From Verrucomicrobia bacterium S94 (GTDB taxonomy: Bacteria; Verrucomicrobiota; Kiritimatiellia; Kiritimatiellales; Pontiellaceae): 64,000 nucleotides of DNA. The stretch lies in the NCBI GenBank assembly GCA_004299845.1, contig CP036201.1, positions 2,294,001 through 2,358,000 of the forward strand, read 5' to 3'. Position numbers and translations under genes: made by a program. Position 1 is the stretch's first letter. The number at the start of each line of letters is the position of its first letter. The notes under the pieces were generated by a model, which searched no databases, had not been told where the DNA came from, and was given only the letters and a program-made list of their open reading frames with translations. Shown here piece by piece: positions 10,162-51,506 of this stretch.

Positions 10162-11151
10162 TTATAGCAAATCCAACGGGCTCTTCACCTGATCCAGATC
10201 CTTATTCATCACATGCGTATAAATTTCCGTTGTTTTAACATCCGCATGCCCCATCAGCTCCTGCACCATCCGGATATTCGTCCCATTTTCCAACAGATGC
10301 GTCGCAAACGAATGCCGCAACGTATGACAGCCCGCACGTTTCCGGATACCACACCGCTCCACCGCCACCTTAACCGCACGCTGCAGCCCCGACTCCTTTA
10401 CATGATGCCGCATTTCCCGTCCACTTCGCGGATCCCTCGACCGCTTCTTCGACGGAAAAACATACTGCCAGCCCGGCTCACGACACGCATTCGGATACTT
10501 CCGAGCCAACCCCTCCGGAATATAAACCTCTCCGAAACCCTCCGCCAGATCCCGCTCATGCAACCGCAAAACCCGATCAATCTGATGCCCCAGTGCCGGC
10601 ACCACCGACTTCGGCAGCACCACCGTCCGATCCTTATTCCCCTTGCCGCCCCGGACAAAAACCTGCCCCTGCCCGAAATCCACGTCCTGAACCCGTAACC
10701 GGATACACTCCATCAACCGCAACCCGCAGCCATACAACAACTGAGCCATCAACTGATGCGTCCCCGACAGCTCCAACAAAAGCTCACGCGCCTCCTCCTG
10801 AGTCAGAACCGTCGGCGGCCGACGCTCCCGACGCCCCCGCGTCGGCGCAATCTCACCCAGCTCCATATCCAGCACCTCGCGGTATAAAAAAACAATCGCA
10901 TTCAACGCCTGACGCTGCGTTGAAGCGGAAACGCCCTCCTTCACCGCCAAATAACTCAGAAAACGTTCAATCTCAGCAGCTCCCATATCCCGTGGATGCC
11001 GCTTCATCTCATAAAAACGCAAATACCGCCGAATCCAGCTGCAATACGTCTGCTCCGTACGAATCGCATAATGATGAAATCGCAAAACCTCCTTCACCTG
11101 CTCCATCAACTTTAATTTTGGATCCGGACGAAACCGCGCACTGCCGCTCAT
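10162..11151 (-). CDS. intI: Integron integrase (tyrosine recombinase)
   Basis: A 329-residue tyrosine recombinase that recombines folded single-stranded attC with attI to insert, excise and shuffle cassettes. It has the N-terminal SAM-like DNA-binding domain (about 10-100) and the catalytic residues Arg in GCGLRLMECIRLRV, His-x-x-Arg in HTLRHSFATHLLENG, His in LMGHADVKTTEIYTHV, and the nucleophile Tyr in the same stretch. The IntI-specific extra helix between patches II and III is present (CREPGWQYVFPS), which separates it from XerC/D. The start at 11151 is chosen over 11163 because a G6 run lies just ahead. All catalytic residues are intact, so it is probably active. It reads away from the array, as is normal. 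Confidence 0.96.
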   Translation of the reverse strand: MSGSARFRPDPKLKLMEQVKEVLRFHHYAIRTEQTYCSWIRRYLRFYEMKRHPRDMGAAEIERFLSYLAVKEGVSASTQRQALNAIVFLYREVLDMELGEIAPTRGRRERRPPTVLTQEEARELLLELSGTHQLMAQLLYGCGLRLMECIRLRVQDVDFGQGQVFVRGGKGNKDRTVVLPKSVVPALGHQIDRVLRLHERDLAEGFGEVYIPEGLARKYPNACREPGWQYVFPSKKRSRDPRSGREMRHHVKESGLQRAVKVAVERCGIRKRAGCHTLRHSFATHLLENGTNIRMVQELMGHADVKTTEIYTHVMNKDLDQVKSPLDLL

Positions 11152-28091: not shown

Positions 28092-28172
28092 CCAGAGCCT
28101 TGACCTTACCGTGAAAACGCCCGTCGATTCGGTCAACGTTTTGCGCACGGCAGGTCAGGCTTAACGTTGGAA
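28086..28172 (+). other. attC: attC of c32
   Basis: R'' AGCTAAC (contains the c32 stop), R' GTTGGAA (28166); arms GAGCCTTGACCTTACCGTG and CACGGCAGGTCAGGC. Confidence 0.8.
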
Positions 28173-28405
28173 CAACTCACTTGGGTGCATGAAATTTAAT
28201 GAAATCAGATTTGCAGACAATTCACCGGACAACCTGCTTTTCACCGGACTTCCTGCTGTGCCCGGACAACCTGCAGAGAATCGTAGAAAACCTGAGATAC
28301 TGACTTGCTCAAAACAGAGTCTTTTCCAACCAGTGGTTCGAGTTTACGGTGGCCGACGCCTGTTGATTAAGTGAAGTTTATGTTCACCGAAACTCACCCA
28401 TTAAC
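28166..28405 (+). repeat. c33: cassette R, tandem block unit 1
   Basis: s1 TTTTCAC, s2 TGTGCC, s3 AGAGAAT; open 61-codon frame; attC GTGAAGTTT variant. Confidence 0.9.
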
Positions 28406-28645
28406 GTTGGAACAACTCACTTAGGTGCATGGAATTTAATGAAACCTGATTTGCAGACAATTCACCGGACATCCTGCTCAGCAGCGGACTTCCTGCTGTG
28501 CCCGGACAACCTGCAATGAATCGTAGAAAACCTGAAATACTGACTTGCTCAAAACAGAGTCTTTTCCAACCAGTGGTTCGAGTTTACGGTGGCCGACGCC
28601 TGTTGATTAAGTAAAGTTTATGTTCACCGAAACTCACCCATTAAC
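28406..28645 (+). repeat. c34: cassette R, tandem block unit 2
   Basis: s1 TCAGCAG, s2 TGTGCC, s3 AATGAAT; first repeat unit changed to CGGACATCCTGC. Confidence 0.9.
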
Positions 28646-28886
28646 GTTGGAACAACTCACTTGGGTGCATAAAAATTTAATGAAATATGATTTGCAGACA
28701 ATTCACCGGACAACCTGCTTTTCACCGGACTTCCTGCTGTGCACGGACAACCTGCAATGAATCGTAGAAAACCTGAAATACTGACTTGCTCAAAACAGAG
28801 TCTTTTCCAACCAGTGGTTCGAGTTTACGGTGGCCGACGCCTGTTGATTAAGTAAAGTTTATGTTCACCGAAACTCACCCATTAAC
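28646..28886 (+). repeat. c35: cassette R, tandem block unit 3
   Basis: s1 TTTTCAC, s2 TGTGCA, s3 AATGAAT; leader GCATAAAAATTTAATGAAATATG, 241 bp. Confidence 0.9.
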
Positions 28887-29126
28887 GTTGGAACAACTCA
28901 CTTAGGTGCATGGAATTTAATGAAATCAGATTTGCAGACAATTCACCGGACAACCTGCTCTGCAACGGACTTCCTGCTGTGCACGGACAACCTGCAGAGA
29001 ATCGTAGAAAACCTGAGATACTGACTTGCTCAAAACAGAGTCTTTTCCAACCAGTGGTTCGAGTTTACGGTGGCCGACGCCTGTTGATTAAGTGAAGTTT
29101 ATGTTCACCGAAACTCACCCATTAAC
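28887..29126 (+). repeat. c36: cassette R, tandem block unit 4
   Basis: s1 TCTGCAA, s2 TGTGCA, s3 AGAGAAT; mixes the stop-type leader (TTAGGTGCATGG) with the open-type next segment (GAAATCAG), leaving the frame open. Confidence 0.9.
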
Positions 29127-29366
29127 GTTGGAACAACTCACTTGGGTGCATGAAATTTAATGAAATCAGATTTGCAGACAATTCACCGGACAACCTGCTC
29201 AGCAGCGGACTTCCTGCTGTGCCCGGACAACCTGCAATGAATCGTAGAAAACCTGAGATACTGACTTGCTCAAAACAGAGTCTTTTCCAACCAGTGGTTC
29301 GAGTTTACGGTGGCCGACGCCTGTTGATTAAGTGAAGTTTATGTTCACCGAAACTCACCCATTAAC
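29127..29366 (+). repeat. c37: cassette R, tandem block unit 5
   Basis: s1 TCAGCAG, s2 TGTGCC, s3 AATGAAT; open frame. Confidence 0.9.
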
Positions 29367-29606
29367 GTTGGAACAACTCACTTAGGTGCATGGAATTTAA
29401 TGAAACCTGATTTGCAGACAATTCACCGGACAACCTGCTCTGCAGCGGACTTCCTGCTGTGTCCGGACAACCTGCAGAGAAACGTAGAAAACCTGAGATA
29501 CTGACTTGCTCAAAACAGAGTCTTTTCCAACCAGTGGTTCGAGTTTACGGTGGCCGACGCCTGTTGATTAAGTAAAGTTTATGTTCACCGAAACTCACCC
29601 ATTAAC
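29367..29606 (+). repeat. c38: cassette R, tandem block unit 6
   Basis: s1 TCTGCAG, s2 TGTGTC, s3 AGAGAAA; frame broken by TGA. Confidence 0.9.
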
Positions 29607-29846
29607 GTTGGAACAACTCACTTAGGTGCATGGAATTTAATGAAACCTGATTTGCAGACAATTCACCGGACAACCTGCTCTGCAACGGACTTCCTGCTGT
29701 GCACGGACAACCTGCAATGAATCGTAGAAAACCTGAAATACTGACTTGCTCAAAACAGAGTCTTTTCCAACCAGTGGTTCGAGTTTACGGTGGCCGACGC
29801 CTGTTGATTAAGTGAAGTTTATGTTCACCGAAACTCACCCATTAAC
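29607..29846 (+). repeat. c39: cassette R, tandem block unit 7
   Basis: s1 TCTGCAA, s2 TGTGCA, s3 AATGAAT; same blocks as c11. Confidence 0.9.
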
Positions 29847-30087
29847 GTTGGAACAACTCACTTAGGTGCATAAAAATTCAATAAAATCAGATTTGCAGAC
29901 AATTCACCGGACAACCTGCTCAGCAGCGGACTTCCTGCTGTGCCCGGACAACCTGCTTGAACTCGAAGAAAACCTGAGATACTGACTTGCTCAAAACAGA
30001 GTCTTTTCCAACCAGTGGTTCGAGTTTACGGTGGCCGACGCCTGCTGATTAAGTAAAGTTTATGTTCACCGAAACTCACCCATTAAC
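29847..30087 (+). repeat. c40: cassette R, tandem block unit 8
   Basis: s1 TCAGCAG, s2 TGTGCC, s3 TTGAACT; leader GCATAAAAATTCAATAAAATC without ATG; attC spacer GCCTGCTGATT. Appears identical to c42 and c57. Confidence 0.9.
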
Positions 30088-30327
30088 GTTGGAACAACTC
30101 ACTTAGGTGCATGGAATTTAATGAAACCTGATTTGCAGACAATTCACCGGACAACCTGCTCTGCAACGGACTTCCTGCTATGCTCGGACAACCTGCAATG
30201 AATCGTAGAAAACCTGAAATACTGACTTGCTCAAAACAGAGTCTTTTCCAACCAGTGGTTCGAGTTTACGGTGGCCGACGCCTATTGATTAAGTAAAGTT
30301 TATGTTCACCGAAACTCACCCATTAAC
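30088..30327 (+). repeat. c41: cassette R, tandem block unit 9
   Basis: s1 TCTGCAA, s2 TATGCT, s3 AATGAAT; attC spacer GCCTATTGATT. Appears identical to c61. Confidence 0.9.
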
Positions 30328-30568
30328 GTTGGAACAACTCACTTAGGTGCATAAAAATTCAATAAAATCAGATTTGCAGACAATTCACCGGACAACCTGC
30401 TCAGCAGCGGACTTCCTGCTGTGCCCGGACAACCTGCTTGAACTCGAAGAAAACCTGAGATACTGACTTGCTCAAAACAGAGTCTTTTCCAACCAGTGGT
30501 TCGAGTTTACGGTGGCCGACGCCTGCTGATTAAGTAAAGTTTATGTTCACCGAAACTCACCCATTAAC
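30328..30568 (+). repeat. c42: cassette R, tandem block unit 10
   Basis: Same sequence as c40, closing the ten-unit tandem run that starts at 28166. Confidence 0.9.
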
Positions 30569-48032: not shown

Positions 48033-48861
48033 CCTGTTAACACTTATGCTTGCAATATAAAACAAGTCTGGTACTATCTTTATATGAAAATAACCGAAGC
48101 CCAGTACGACAAAATCGCCCATGTGTTGCCGGTGCAGCGAGGCAACGTAACTCTTTCCAATATCGAGGTTTTAAACGCCATTCTCTATGTGGCCGAGCAC
48201 GGCTGCAAGTGGCGCGGACTCCCCTCTCGCTTTGGAAACTGGCACACCATTTACACCCGCATGAACCGCTGGGCAAAAAAAGGCGTTCTCGCAAACGTGT
48301 TCGATGAACTGCAGAAACAGCAGCTCGTGAAGATCAACCTTGAAGCGGTGTCCATCGACAGCACCTCGATCAAGGTGCATCCCGACGGAACCGGCGCATT
48401 AAAAAAAACGGCAAACAATCCATAGGAAAGTCCCGTGGTGGCTGGACTACCAAGATCCATTTGATCGCCGCCAACGCCCGGATCGCACTGGATTTCTCCC
48501 TTTCCCCGGGACAAGCCGGTGATGGTCCGGAAGGTCGTAAACTACTGGCCAGCTGGGGCGAGGATCGCCCTGAAGGCATTTGCAATGTATTGATGGATAA
48601 GGCCTACGAAGGAGATGAAACCCGGCAGCTGGTGTTCGATCTTGACCTCACTCCCGTTGTGCCGCCCAAGGCCAATCGACTTGAACCTTGGGAATACGAC
48701 AAGGAAATGTACAAGCGGCGCAATGAAGTGGAGCGCCTGTTCCGCCGCTTAAAAGGATTCCGTCGAATCTTCTCCCGCTTCGAGAAACTCGACGTAATGT
48801 TCTGTGCGTTCATCCACTTCGCCCTGACTGTGGACATGCTTCCGTTGTGTTAACACGCCCT
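48030..48861 (+). mobile_element. IS5-family (IS427-like) insertion sequence
   Basis: 832 bp. Ends GGGCCTGTTAACAC and (complement) GGGCGTGTTAACAC. The flanks share TA (48028 and 48862), the short duplication of the IS427 group. It is inserted in the attC core of c68. Confidence 0.88.
48084..48853 (+). CDS. IS5/IS427 transposase in two frames (programmed frameshift)
   Basis: The first frame (48084-48425) covers the N-terminal DUF4096-type part (LNAILYVAEHGCKWRGLPSRFGNW) and the first catalytic Asp (VSIDSTSIKVH). The second (to 48853) covers GGWTTKIHLIAANARI, MDKAYEGDE and the Glu in RRNEVERLFRRLKGFRR. They join by slipping on the A8 tract near 48400 (GALKK then NGKQSIGKSRGG), as is usual in this group. 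The full product would be about 256 residues. Confidence 0.9.
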
Positions 48862-49522: not shown

Positions 49523-49610
49523 TGCTAACCAGAGGCTTGACCTTACCGTGAAAACGCCCGTCGATCCGGTCGAAGTTTATGTGCACGGCAGGTCAGCCTT
49601 AACGTTCATA
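49523..49610 (+). other. attC: attC of c69, core interrupted by IS110
   Basis: R'' TGCTAAC, then arms GAGGCTTGACC and GGTCAGCCTTAACGT. Right after AACGT the sequence becomes IS110 (TCATATGG...). The other half of the core (TGGAAC) appears at 51355. Confidence 0.75.
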
Positions 49611-49991
49611 TGGCTGAAGTTTTGTCAACAGGGCAAAAAAATATAAGACCCACTTTTTTCTCTCTTTGAAAAAGGGCCGGGCGATCGGAATCGGAGGCGG
49701 CCATGGAACCATTATCACAGGGTGATACGGTTGTTACCCGTTTACAGTGTATGCTCATATTCGTGGACTTTTCAATCCGCCCGGCCTCGGCCGGAGCGAA
49801 TGGCACGTTCGTTTAAACAAACGCACTACCGACAGTATCTTTGATCACCGCGGCCTTGTACCCTTAGTCTGGGTATCGAGTGCTGGCCGTACTCAATGAA
49901 GCAGTAGCGACGTAACTCATAACGTTATCAAGGACCGGCCTCTGTATTTCCAGTGAGCACACCTCCGATTCGATCATCTGTAAAATATATA
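49606..49991 (-). ncRNA. Candidate bridge RNA region of the IS110/IS1111 element
   Basis: 386 bp without a credible gene downstream of the transposase. Recently described IS110-family recombinases use a structured non-coding RNA encoded beside the gene to recognise donor and target. The plus strand here contains CTCATAACGTTATC (near 49917), close to attC right ends of the type CTCACCCATAACGTT. That would fit a target-binding guide, but structure has not been computed. The small reverse frame at 49606-49806 looks like chance. Confidence 0.4.
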
Positions 49992-51242
49992 TTACCTCAC
50001 AAGGTGAGCCAGATCCCATAGATAGGAGGAGAGCTCACGTGCGATGGCTACTTGAATTTTATTGTGATGCACTTTTCTGAACATCAATTTATACCAACGG
50101 TTATTAAGTCGGTTCTGGGCGTGCCAGGAGAGTGCTCGCACTTCGCGGCTCAATCCTTCCTGGCGTTTGGAAAGTGCTTTGGAAACTTTTGGCGGCATAC
50201 GGTAATGACCGGCACATTCAATGAGCATCCAGCGCGCATGCGAATTACCGCACTTGGTGATATTTCCCTGCCGGCGATGGTTACCCGTTGTGTTTTCTTT
50301 GGGAACCATTCCCGGAAATCCCATGAACAGTTTCGGATGAGCGAACCGCAGAAAGTCCCCCACCTCGGCGGTGAGCACCATCGCGGCGGTCGTCCTGAAT
50401 CCCCGGAAGCCCATCAACGCCTCAACGAACGCGCGGCGGCTCCAGGTCTGCAGCAGCAGTTCCATCTGATGATCAATCCGTCCGACCTGCGCCGTAGCGG
50501 CATCGATTCGAAGCAGATATTCCTCCATTACCATTTTCTGCGCACGCTCCGGCATCACCAGTTCGCGCAGATAACGCATATGCGCCTCGGTCCAGCCGGC
50601 TTTCCCGGTATAGCGGTATCCATTGCGCAGCAGAAAACCCGAGAGCTGCTGCTTCCCGCGTTTGGTATAGCGGTATCCATTGCGCAGCAGAAAACCCGAG
50701 AGCTGCTGCTTCCCGCGTTTGGTATAGCGGTATCCATTGCGCAGCAGAAAACCCGAGAGCTGCTGCTTCCCGCGTTTCACCTCATTCACCGCATCGGTGC
50801 GGCCGCGGCAGACATCGCGGATCACCTCGTCCTCCACATTCGGGATATGAACGGAAATCAGTTCACCGGCCCGATGCAGCCGCGCGAGTTTGCATGCATC
50901 CAGCCGGTCGGTTTTAACTTTATCTCCGGCGCGTTCCGGAATTTTCGACGGAGCAATCACCTGGCAGTCAAATCCGAGTTTAATCAGGCGCCGCGCCAAT
51001 ACAAATCCCGTCGGCCCGGCCTCATAGCAGAGGTGCAGTTGCTCCTTCGTCAGGTTGTTATTTTTCATGTACCTCCGAATGAAGGTCAGTGTCCGGTTCA
51101 TATCAGCCGAACATTTTCCGATGAGCTCTCCCCTGCAACGCCCGTCAAAGGCTGAACCGAATACATTTTCATCTTTGTGAACATCAATTCCTACGTATAC
51201 TTCTTTCATGGCGTGCTCCTTTGGTTTGAATGCTTCGTTCAT
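49992..51242 (-). CDS. IS110-family DEDD transposase with a triplicated 19-residue segment
   Basis: 416 residues: N-terminal RuvC-like DEDD domain (YVGIDVHKDENVF, CYEAGPTGFVLARRL, KTDRLDACKLARL) and C-terminal Tnp_20 domain with the catalytic Ser region (FRGFRTTAAMVLTAEVGDF, FPGMVPKENTTGN). Between the two, the normally single linker segment GKQQLSGFLLRNGYRYT occurs three times in tandem (three 57-bp units at about 50606-50776). It adds 38 residues to a coiled-coil region, so activity is uncertain. The start may be the downstream MKEVYVG codon at 51209. Confidence 0.9.
   Translation of the reverse strand: MNEAFKPKEHAMKEVYVGIDVHKDENVFGSAFDGRCRGELIGKCSADMNRTLTFIRRYMKNNNLTKEQLHLCYEAGPTGFVLARRLIKLGFDCQVIAPSKIPERAGDKVKTDRLDACKLARLHRAGELISVHIPNVEDEVIRDVCRGRTDAVNEVKRGKQQLSGFLLRNGYRYTKRGKQQLSGFLLRNGYRYTKRGKQQLSGFLLRNGYRYTGKAGWTEAHMRYLRELVMPERAQKMVMEEYLLRIDAATAQVGRIDHQMELLLQTWSRRAFVEALMGFRGFRTTAAMVLTAEVGDFLRFAHPKLFMGFPGMVPKENTTGNHRRQGNITKCGNSHARWMLIECAGHYRMPPKVSKALSKRQEGLSREVRALSWHAQNRLNNRWYKLMFRKVHHNKIQVAIARELSSYLWDLAHLVR
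50606..50776 (-). repeat. Three tandem 57-bp units inside the IS110 transposase
   Basis: The 57-bp block that begins GGTATAGCGGTATCCATTGC on the plus strand is present three times head to tail without visible difference. Each unit codes for 19 residues, so the frame is kept. Confidence 0.92.
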
Positions 51243-51354
51243 TCAATGTTGGATAGGCTCCGGCTCGCCGGAGCAGCCCACGGAACCCCCGAGGGCACGC
51301 CTCTTAATTTAAAGGGAAAATGACCGAGGCGCCATCAACTTCAGGCATAAGGTC

Positions 51355-51506
51355 TGGAACAACTCACTTGGGTGAATGAAATTTAATGAAACCTGATTTG
51401 CAGACAATTCACCGGACAACCTGCTCTGCAACGGACTTCCTGCTGTGCACGGACAACCTGCAATAAATCGTAGAAAACCTGAAATACTGACTTGCTCAAA
51501 ACAGAG
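51355..51506 (+). repeat. c70: terminal cassette R, truncated and lacking attC
   Basis: s1 TCTGCAA, s2 TGTGCA, s3 AATAAAT. Homology to the other R copies starts at TGGAAC (the GT is on the far side of the IS110) and stops at CAAAACAGAG, just before the attC would begin. This marks the distal end of the integron. Confidence 0.88.

What the first reader, a model, noticed from the sequence alone, without database searches (positions are those of the whole stretch)
50606..50776. Triplicated 57-bp segment inside the IS110 transposase
A 19-residue segment that is normally single occurs three times in frame. The copies look identical, so the expansion is very recent. It lies in the linker between the RuvC-like and Tnp_20 domains, a coiled-coil region, so the length change may alter the tetramer or inactivate the enzyme.
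Basis: seen in the sequence. Interest (0 to 1): 0.6.

Follow-up and report, generated by a model that had tools for sequence, protein, structure and literature searches.

The report
Tripled segment in an integron-targeting transposase
One copy of a jumping gene that inserts into integron cassette sites has had a 57-letter stretch of its enzyme gene repeated three times, a real but probably one-off mutation that most likely weakens the enzyme.

Summary
Three identical 57-bp units lie head to tail at window 50607-50777 (one base right of the reported span), in frame in a 416-aa transposase on the minus strand. A second, truncated copy of the same element in the same genome (99% and 98% identical over its two matching pieces) has one unit. 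In 102 relatives with both flanks, 101 have a linker of 50-53 aa and the other 40; the window copy has 89.

The element is not a plain IS110. It has the marks of the IS1111 group: subterminal inverted repeats, a ~385-bp downstream non-coding region, and insertion at attC ends. It sits at the last of 55 attC-like sites of a chromosomal integron with its own IntI gene. The genome belongs to Pontiella (genus inferred).

In a single-unit relative, the unit is the last 13 residues of a continuous 33-residue coiled-coil helix plus its turn. AlphaFold2 breaks that helix in the tripled protein. DEDD residues and the Thr-Gly active-site variant usual in IS1111 are intact.

Best reading: a copy-private in-frame tandem expansion in an otherwise complete IS, probably impairing but not certainly killing it. 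Interest is low to modest.

The parts
49607..51355 (-). IS1111-type insertion sequence (ends set by the 7-bp/3-bp rule for terminal extensions; uncertain by 1-2 bases)
   Evidence: conserved left end AGACC and right end CATATG|AACGT in other copies and relatives; inverted repeats
49992..51242 (-). transposase ORF, 416 aa (378 aa plus 38 aa from two extra units); the start may instead be Met12
   Evidence: Met12 conserved in relatives
50607..50777 (-). 57-bp tandem repeat, three identical copies, aa 156-212
50607..50663 (-). unit 3 (next to the variable region)
50664..50720 (-). unit 2
50721..50777 (-). unit 1 (continues coiled-coil helix 1)
49607..49991 (-). downstream non-coding region, probable seekRNA source; contains an AACGTT tract conserved in relatives and equal to the target flank
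   Evidence: alignment of 6 elements
49609..49621 (+). right-end subterminal inverted repeat
   Evidence: pair I11
51337..51349 (-). left-end subterminal inverted repeat
   Evidence: pair I11
49523..49606 (+). attC-like site whose end is the insertion target
51355..51506 (+). remainder of a 240-bp cassette on the far side of the insertion, without its attC

Best explanation
This is a copy-specific, in-frame tandem triplication of 57 bp inside the transposase gene of an otherwise complete, attC-targeting IS1111-type insertion sequence in a chromosomal integron of a Pontiella species. Shown: the array, the single-unit state in the second copy and relatives, and the attC target. Inferred: a first duplication without visible homology at its ends, then unequal exchange or slippage to three copies. 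Predicted: the unit is the C-terminal part of the first coiled-coil helix plus its turn, so two extra helix-turn units (38 aa) are added at the tip of the coiled coil. Inferred effect: either unit 1 completes the native helix and units 2-3 bulge into the neighbouring variable region (reduced activity), or helix 1 is broken and dimerisation fails (inactive). I think impairment, partial or full, more likely than normal function (about 70 to 30).
For: Exact array. Single unit in the second copy, whose flanking CDS differs at 10 of 742 nt. 101 of 102 relatives with linkers of 50-53 aa. Continuous helix 129-161 in the single-unit relative, with the unit at 149-167; broken helices and pLDDT under 50 for most of units 1-2 in the tripled model. 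DEDD residues D20, E74, D112, D115 kept. Unit holds the LxxFLLR motif, with Arg invariant in 45 of 45 aligned rows. Ends and target shared with relatives. Largest number of departures from conserved positions of 45 aligned proteins, 8 of 82.
Against: The ORF stays open and in frame, and 6 synonymous against 4 non-synonymous differences to the second copy (ratio about 0.20, tiny numbers) suggest constraint on the lineage. The homologues in the structure alignment pair with unit 3 (seen in the small alignment; the larger one was shown in summary only, with the conserved positions of the segment placed at unit 3), so low confidence in units 1-2 is partly built in. The family as a whole varies in length in the variable region next to the insertion (PMC11187229, passages read). 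The eight departures partly reflect lineage: several are shared with nearer relatives.
Confidence: 0.72

Rival explanations
1. Assembly or polishing artefact: the genome has one unit and the extra two were created by the assembler.
For: Copy number of short tandem arrays is a known weak point of reference assemblies: PMC12817950 (passages read) reports that half of 28 structural differences between two references were likely errors. No relative shares the array.
Against: The genome is one 4.1-Mb contig, which suggests long reads that span 171 bp easily; no similar array of three or more perfect units was found in 487,003 sampled bases.
Confidence: 0.1
2. A tolerated or useful length variant: the 38 extra residues extend the variable region at the tip of the coiled coil and the element still moves, possibly with changed assembly or RNA handling.
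For: Frame kept; catalytic residues kept; ends and non-coding region kept; the family's transposase length differences lie mostly in the variable region (PMC11187229).
Against: No three-unit copy elsewhere in the genome or in relatives; linker length is nearly constant in this clade; the unit carries conserved residues that would be duplicated out of place.
Confidence: 0.15
3. The element was already dead before the expansion, and the array is neutral drift.
For: The genome otherwise holds only truncated or fragmentary copies of the closest family; 8 departures at 82 conserved positions, including Ala for Pro at 271; the second copy is truncated and has Phe for the conserved Leu at position 82.
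Against: No stop or frameshift in 416 codons; Thr instead of Ser before Gly is usual for IS1111, seen as S-T or T-T in 23 of 102 relatives.
Confidence: 0.25

Closest known systems
IS1111-attC group (ISKpn4, ISPst6; Tetu and Holmes 2008, Post and Hall 2009, known here only as cited in PMC11187229)
   Same: DEDD transposase with C-terminal (S/T)G motif, subterminal inverted repeats, long downstream non-coding region, insertion at one end of attC
   Different: Chromosomal integron of Pontiella; transposase with a tripled 19-aa segment; the inverted repeat is imperfect (92%)
IS621 and ISCro4 recombinases (IS110 type; PDB 8wt6, 9t56)
   Same: Same fold by Foldseek, E 8e-12 and 4e-12 for the window model; RuvC, coiled coil and Tnp domains
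   Different: 18% identity over the aligned part; bridge RNA from the left end of the element in IS621 (PMC11208158); no expanded coiled coil
Copy-number-variable tandem repeats (VNTRs), for example the 57-bp dop array of M. tuberculosis (PMC12817950, passages read)
   Same: Same kind of mutation and, by coincidence, the same unit length
   Different: That array is a promoter repeat varying between strains; here no variation among strains could be tested

Membership tests
IS1111 group of IS110-type insertion sequences | DEDD (RuvC-like) N-terminal domain and Transposase_20 C-terminal domain | tested here: met
   PF01548 40.2 bits (cut-off 29) and PF02371 54.2 bits (cut-off 21.3); D20, E74, D112, D115 present
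IS1111 group of IS110-type insertion sequences | GL-P----S(t)G motif | tested here: met
   GMVPKENTTG: TG form; Met for Leu at the second motif place
IS1111 group of IS110-type insertion sequences | Subterminal inverted repeats of 11-13 bp with short unequal extensions | tested here: met
   13-nt arms, 92% complementary, 49609-49621 and 51337-51349; 7/3-bp extensions fit the junctions
IS1111 group of IS110-type insertion sequences | Longer non-coding region downstream of tnp | tested here: met
   About 385 bp downstream against about 111 bp upstream; conserved blocks in 6 aligned elements
IS1111 group of IS110-type insertion sequences | seekRNA made from that region and bound by the transposase | not testable with these tools
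   Only sequence conservation seen
IS1111-attC group | Insertion at the end of attC sites | tested here: met
   Right flank AACGT in 6 of 6 right ends found; in the window it is the end of an attC-like site
Chromosomal integron (surroundings) | IntI integrase plus array of attC sites in one direction | tested here: met
   TIGR02249 448 bits (cut-off 265) at window 10168-11106; 55 attC-like sites on + and 0 on - strand
Length-polymorphic (VNTR) locus | Copy number differs between individuals of the species | not testable with these tools
   One genome per species is held; two copies in this genome differ, 3 units and 1 unit

The most novel reading that the evidence does not exclude
A natural RNA-guided IS1111 recombinase that stays active with two extra helix-turn units at the tip of its coiled coil, showing that the dimer-forming region of these enzymes can take in 38 residues and could change in length by tandem repeat expansion.
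Probability: 0.12. Interest if true: 0.45.

Novelty: new member of a known kind. Interest (0 to 1): 0.22.

Why it matters
Bridge-RNA and seekRNA recombinases are being developed as DNA-writing tools, and the role of their variable region is not known (PMC11187229). A natural insertion at the junction of coiled-coil helix 1 and that region is a ready-made probe: test the natural three-unit and single-unit proteins side by side. As biology it is most likely an ordinary tandem duplication in a mobile element.

Tried and rejected
Loss of the catalytic serine: the window has Thr-Thr-Gly where most relatives have Ser-Ser-Gly. I first took this as a sign of death; rejected because IS1111 enzymes normally have SG or TG there (PMC11187229, passages) and because 23 of 102 relatives have Thr at the second place.

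Slippage between short direct repeats at the unit's ends: the bases before and after the unit share no homology with its end or start. A 7-bp inverted repeat lies inside the unit, but its fold is not stronger than shuffled sequence (z -0.72 and -0.60 for one unit; two units gave z -2.05 and -1.16), so a hairpin cause is not well supported.

A genome-wide tendency to such arrays: not seen in 487,003 sampled bases.

More copies: protein scans of genome contigs and viral contigs with the window protein alone found no relatives; with alignments they found 80, 11 and 27 loci. Plasmids: 933 records match, all under 60% identity. Rfam: no hit in the window. Papers: 0 for IS110 + transposase + tandem duplication + coiled-coil, 0 for Pontiella + integron, 0 for Kiritimatiell + integron + cassette. 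These are searches of held open-access papers only.

Full report
OBSERVATION. The array is real: period 57, 3.0 copies, 100% matches, at 50607-50777, one base to the right of the stated span. It lies in the minus-strand ORF 49992-51242 (416 aa). Residues 156-174, 175-193 and 194-212 are the same 19-aa sequence and the same 57 bases. The length is exactly three units, with no shared bases between the unit's ends and the flanks.

SAME GENOME. The window is part of a single-contig genome of 4,107,983 bases. A second copy of the element lies at C1:10002-10857. It matches over two pieces: 636 columns at 99% and 277 at 98%, which overlap on one unit. It has one unit and is cut off within the Transposase_20 part. 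Over the 742 coding columns compared there are 10 differences; over 247 codons 6 are synonymous and 4 not. A 93-bp left-end remnant lies at C1:2899128-2899221. The first 27 bases of the unit (plus-strand reading), with up to 3 mismatches, are found four times in the genome and in 0 of 27 other genomes of the genus. So the expansion is private to the window copy among the copies that can be read.

RELATIVES. Of 288 genomes searched (own genome included), 11 had a match at 1e-30. Full-length relatives were gathered from those and from three collection scans. In the final survey I left out the window and all own-genome loci: 151 ORF hits gave 113 distinct proteins, 102 with both flanks of the linker (11 partial rows dropped). 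Linker lengths were 50-53 aa in 101 and 40 aa in one degenerate ORF (L034); none was longer. The window copy has 89. Some of the 102 are close copies of one another, so they are not independent.

AGE. Zero differences among units does not prove a very recent event: at 1.4% divergence the chance of none over 114 extra bases is about 0.20, over 171 about 0.09. The firm statement is that the other readable copy, about 1.3% diverged, does not share it (contraction in that copy is not excluded).

WHAT THE ELEMENT IS. Pfam gives DEDD_Tnp_IS110 at 17-166 and Transposase_20 at 274-346. Ends: 13-nt inverted repeats at 49609-49621 and 51337-51349. Left ends AGACC(T/C)TATG and right ends CATATG followed by AACGT are shared with relatives, with single-base exceptions. 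About 385 bp of non-coding DNA lies downstream of the gene, with blocks conserved in six elements, among them an AACGTT tract equal to the target flank; reading this tract as the guide is my inference. These are the traits that PMC11187229 (passages read) gives for the IS1111 group, some members of which target attC.

SURROUNDINGS. The window holds an integron integrase at 10168-11106, minus strand (TIGR02249, 448 bits), and 55 attC-like sites, all on the plus strand, from 12875 to 49528 (pattern search with up to 3 substitutions). The element sits at the last of these; beyond it is part of a 240-bp cassette without its attC.

STRUCTURE. IS621 has RuvC 1-122, a two-helix coiled coil 123-188 that makes the dimer, and Tnp 189-326 (PMC11208158, passages read). 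AlphaFold2 on the single-unit relative L063 (mean pLDDT 89.0) has one helix 129-161; the unit corresponds to 149-167, thus 13 helix residues and the turn. The tripled protein (mean pLDDT 84.2) shows helices 135-155, 158-167, 174-186 and 193-205, with most of units 1-2 below pLDDT 50. The numbering of that model is one lower than the ORF's. The homologues in its alignment pair with unit 3, which biases confidence toward unit 3. Both models match IS621 and ISCro4 best. Two foldings are open: unit 1 as native helix with units 2-3 bulging out, or a broken helix 1. By analogy with engineered tandem repeats in other proteins (recalled, not read here) the first is possible.

ACTIVITY. The DEDD residues are kept. 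Thr before Gly is normal in IS1111 (S-T or T-T in 23 of 102). The window protein departs from the 90% consensus at 8 of 82 positions, the most of 45 proteins (mean 2.8), though several departures are shared with nearer relatives. I therefore expect an impaired enzyme, without proof.

VERDICT. A true, private, in-frame tandem triplication in an attC-targeting IS1111-type element. It is a usual kind of mutation in an unusual place; it is worth a bench test only as a natural probe of the coiled-coil tip.

Noticed in passing
window 12710-51506, tandem block 28161-30564: A 240-bp integron cassette is present in 23 full-length copies in the array (91-100% identical to the query copy), ten of them in a row, plus one truncated remnant beside the IS. 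TRF shows 19-bp repeats (CGGACAACCTGC-like) inside. Near-full copies also occur in genome G027 of the same genus.
   Followed up: partly
window 10168-49605: A chromosomal integron of a Kiritimatiellota bacterium with IntI and 55 attC-like sites; searches of the held papers for Pontiella or Kiritimatiell with integron gave none.
   Followed up: partly
window transposase aa 317-320 and loci L065, L078, L086, L067: The two residues before the active-site Gly vary as S-S, S-T, T-S and T-T among relatives; in T-T forms no serine is left at this spot.
   Followed up: partly
L015 4107-7129 (G000:C1:9106-12128): Three IS1111-type left ends of different age lie within about 3 kb: the truncated copy and two more degraded relatives.
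   Followed up: no
L016 2900-3130: Short perfect tandem repeat of 39 bp next to the 93-bp left-end remnant.
   Followed up: no
window 48085-48854: The stretch before the last ORF of the array reads like a small transposase interrupted in frame (IS5-like by eye, no search made) within a cassette.
   Followed up: no
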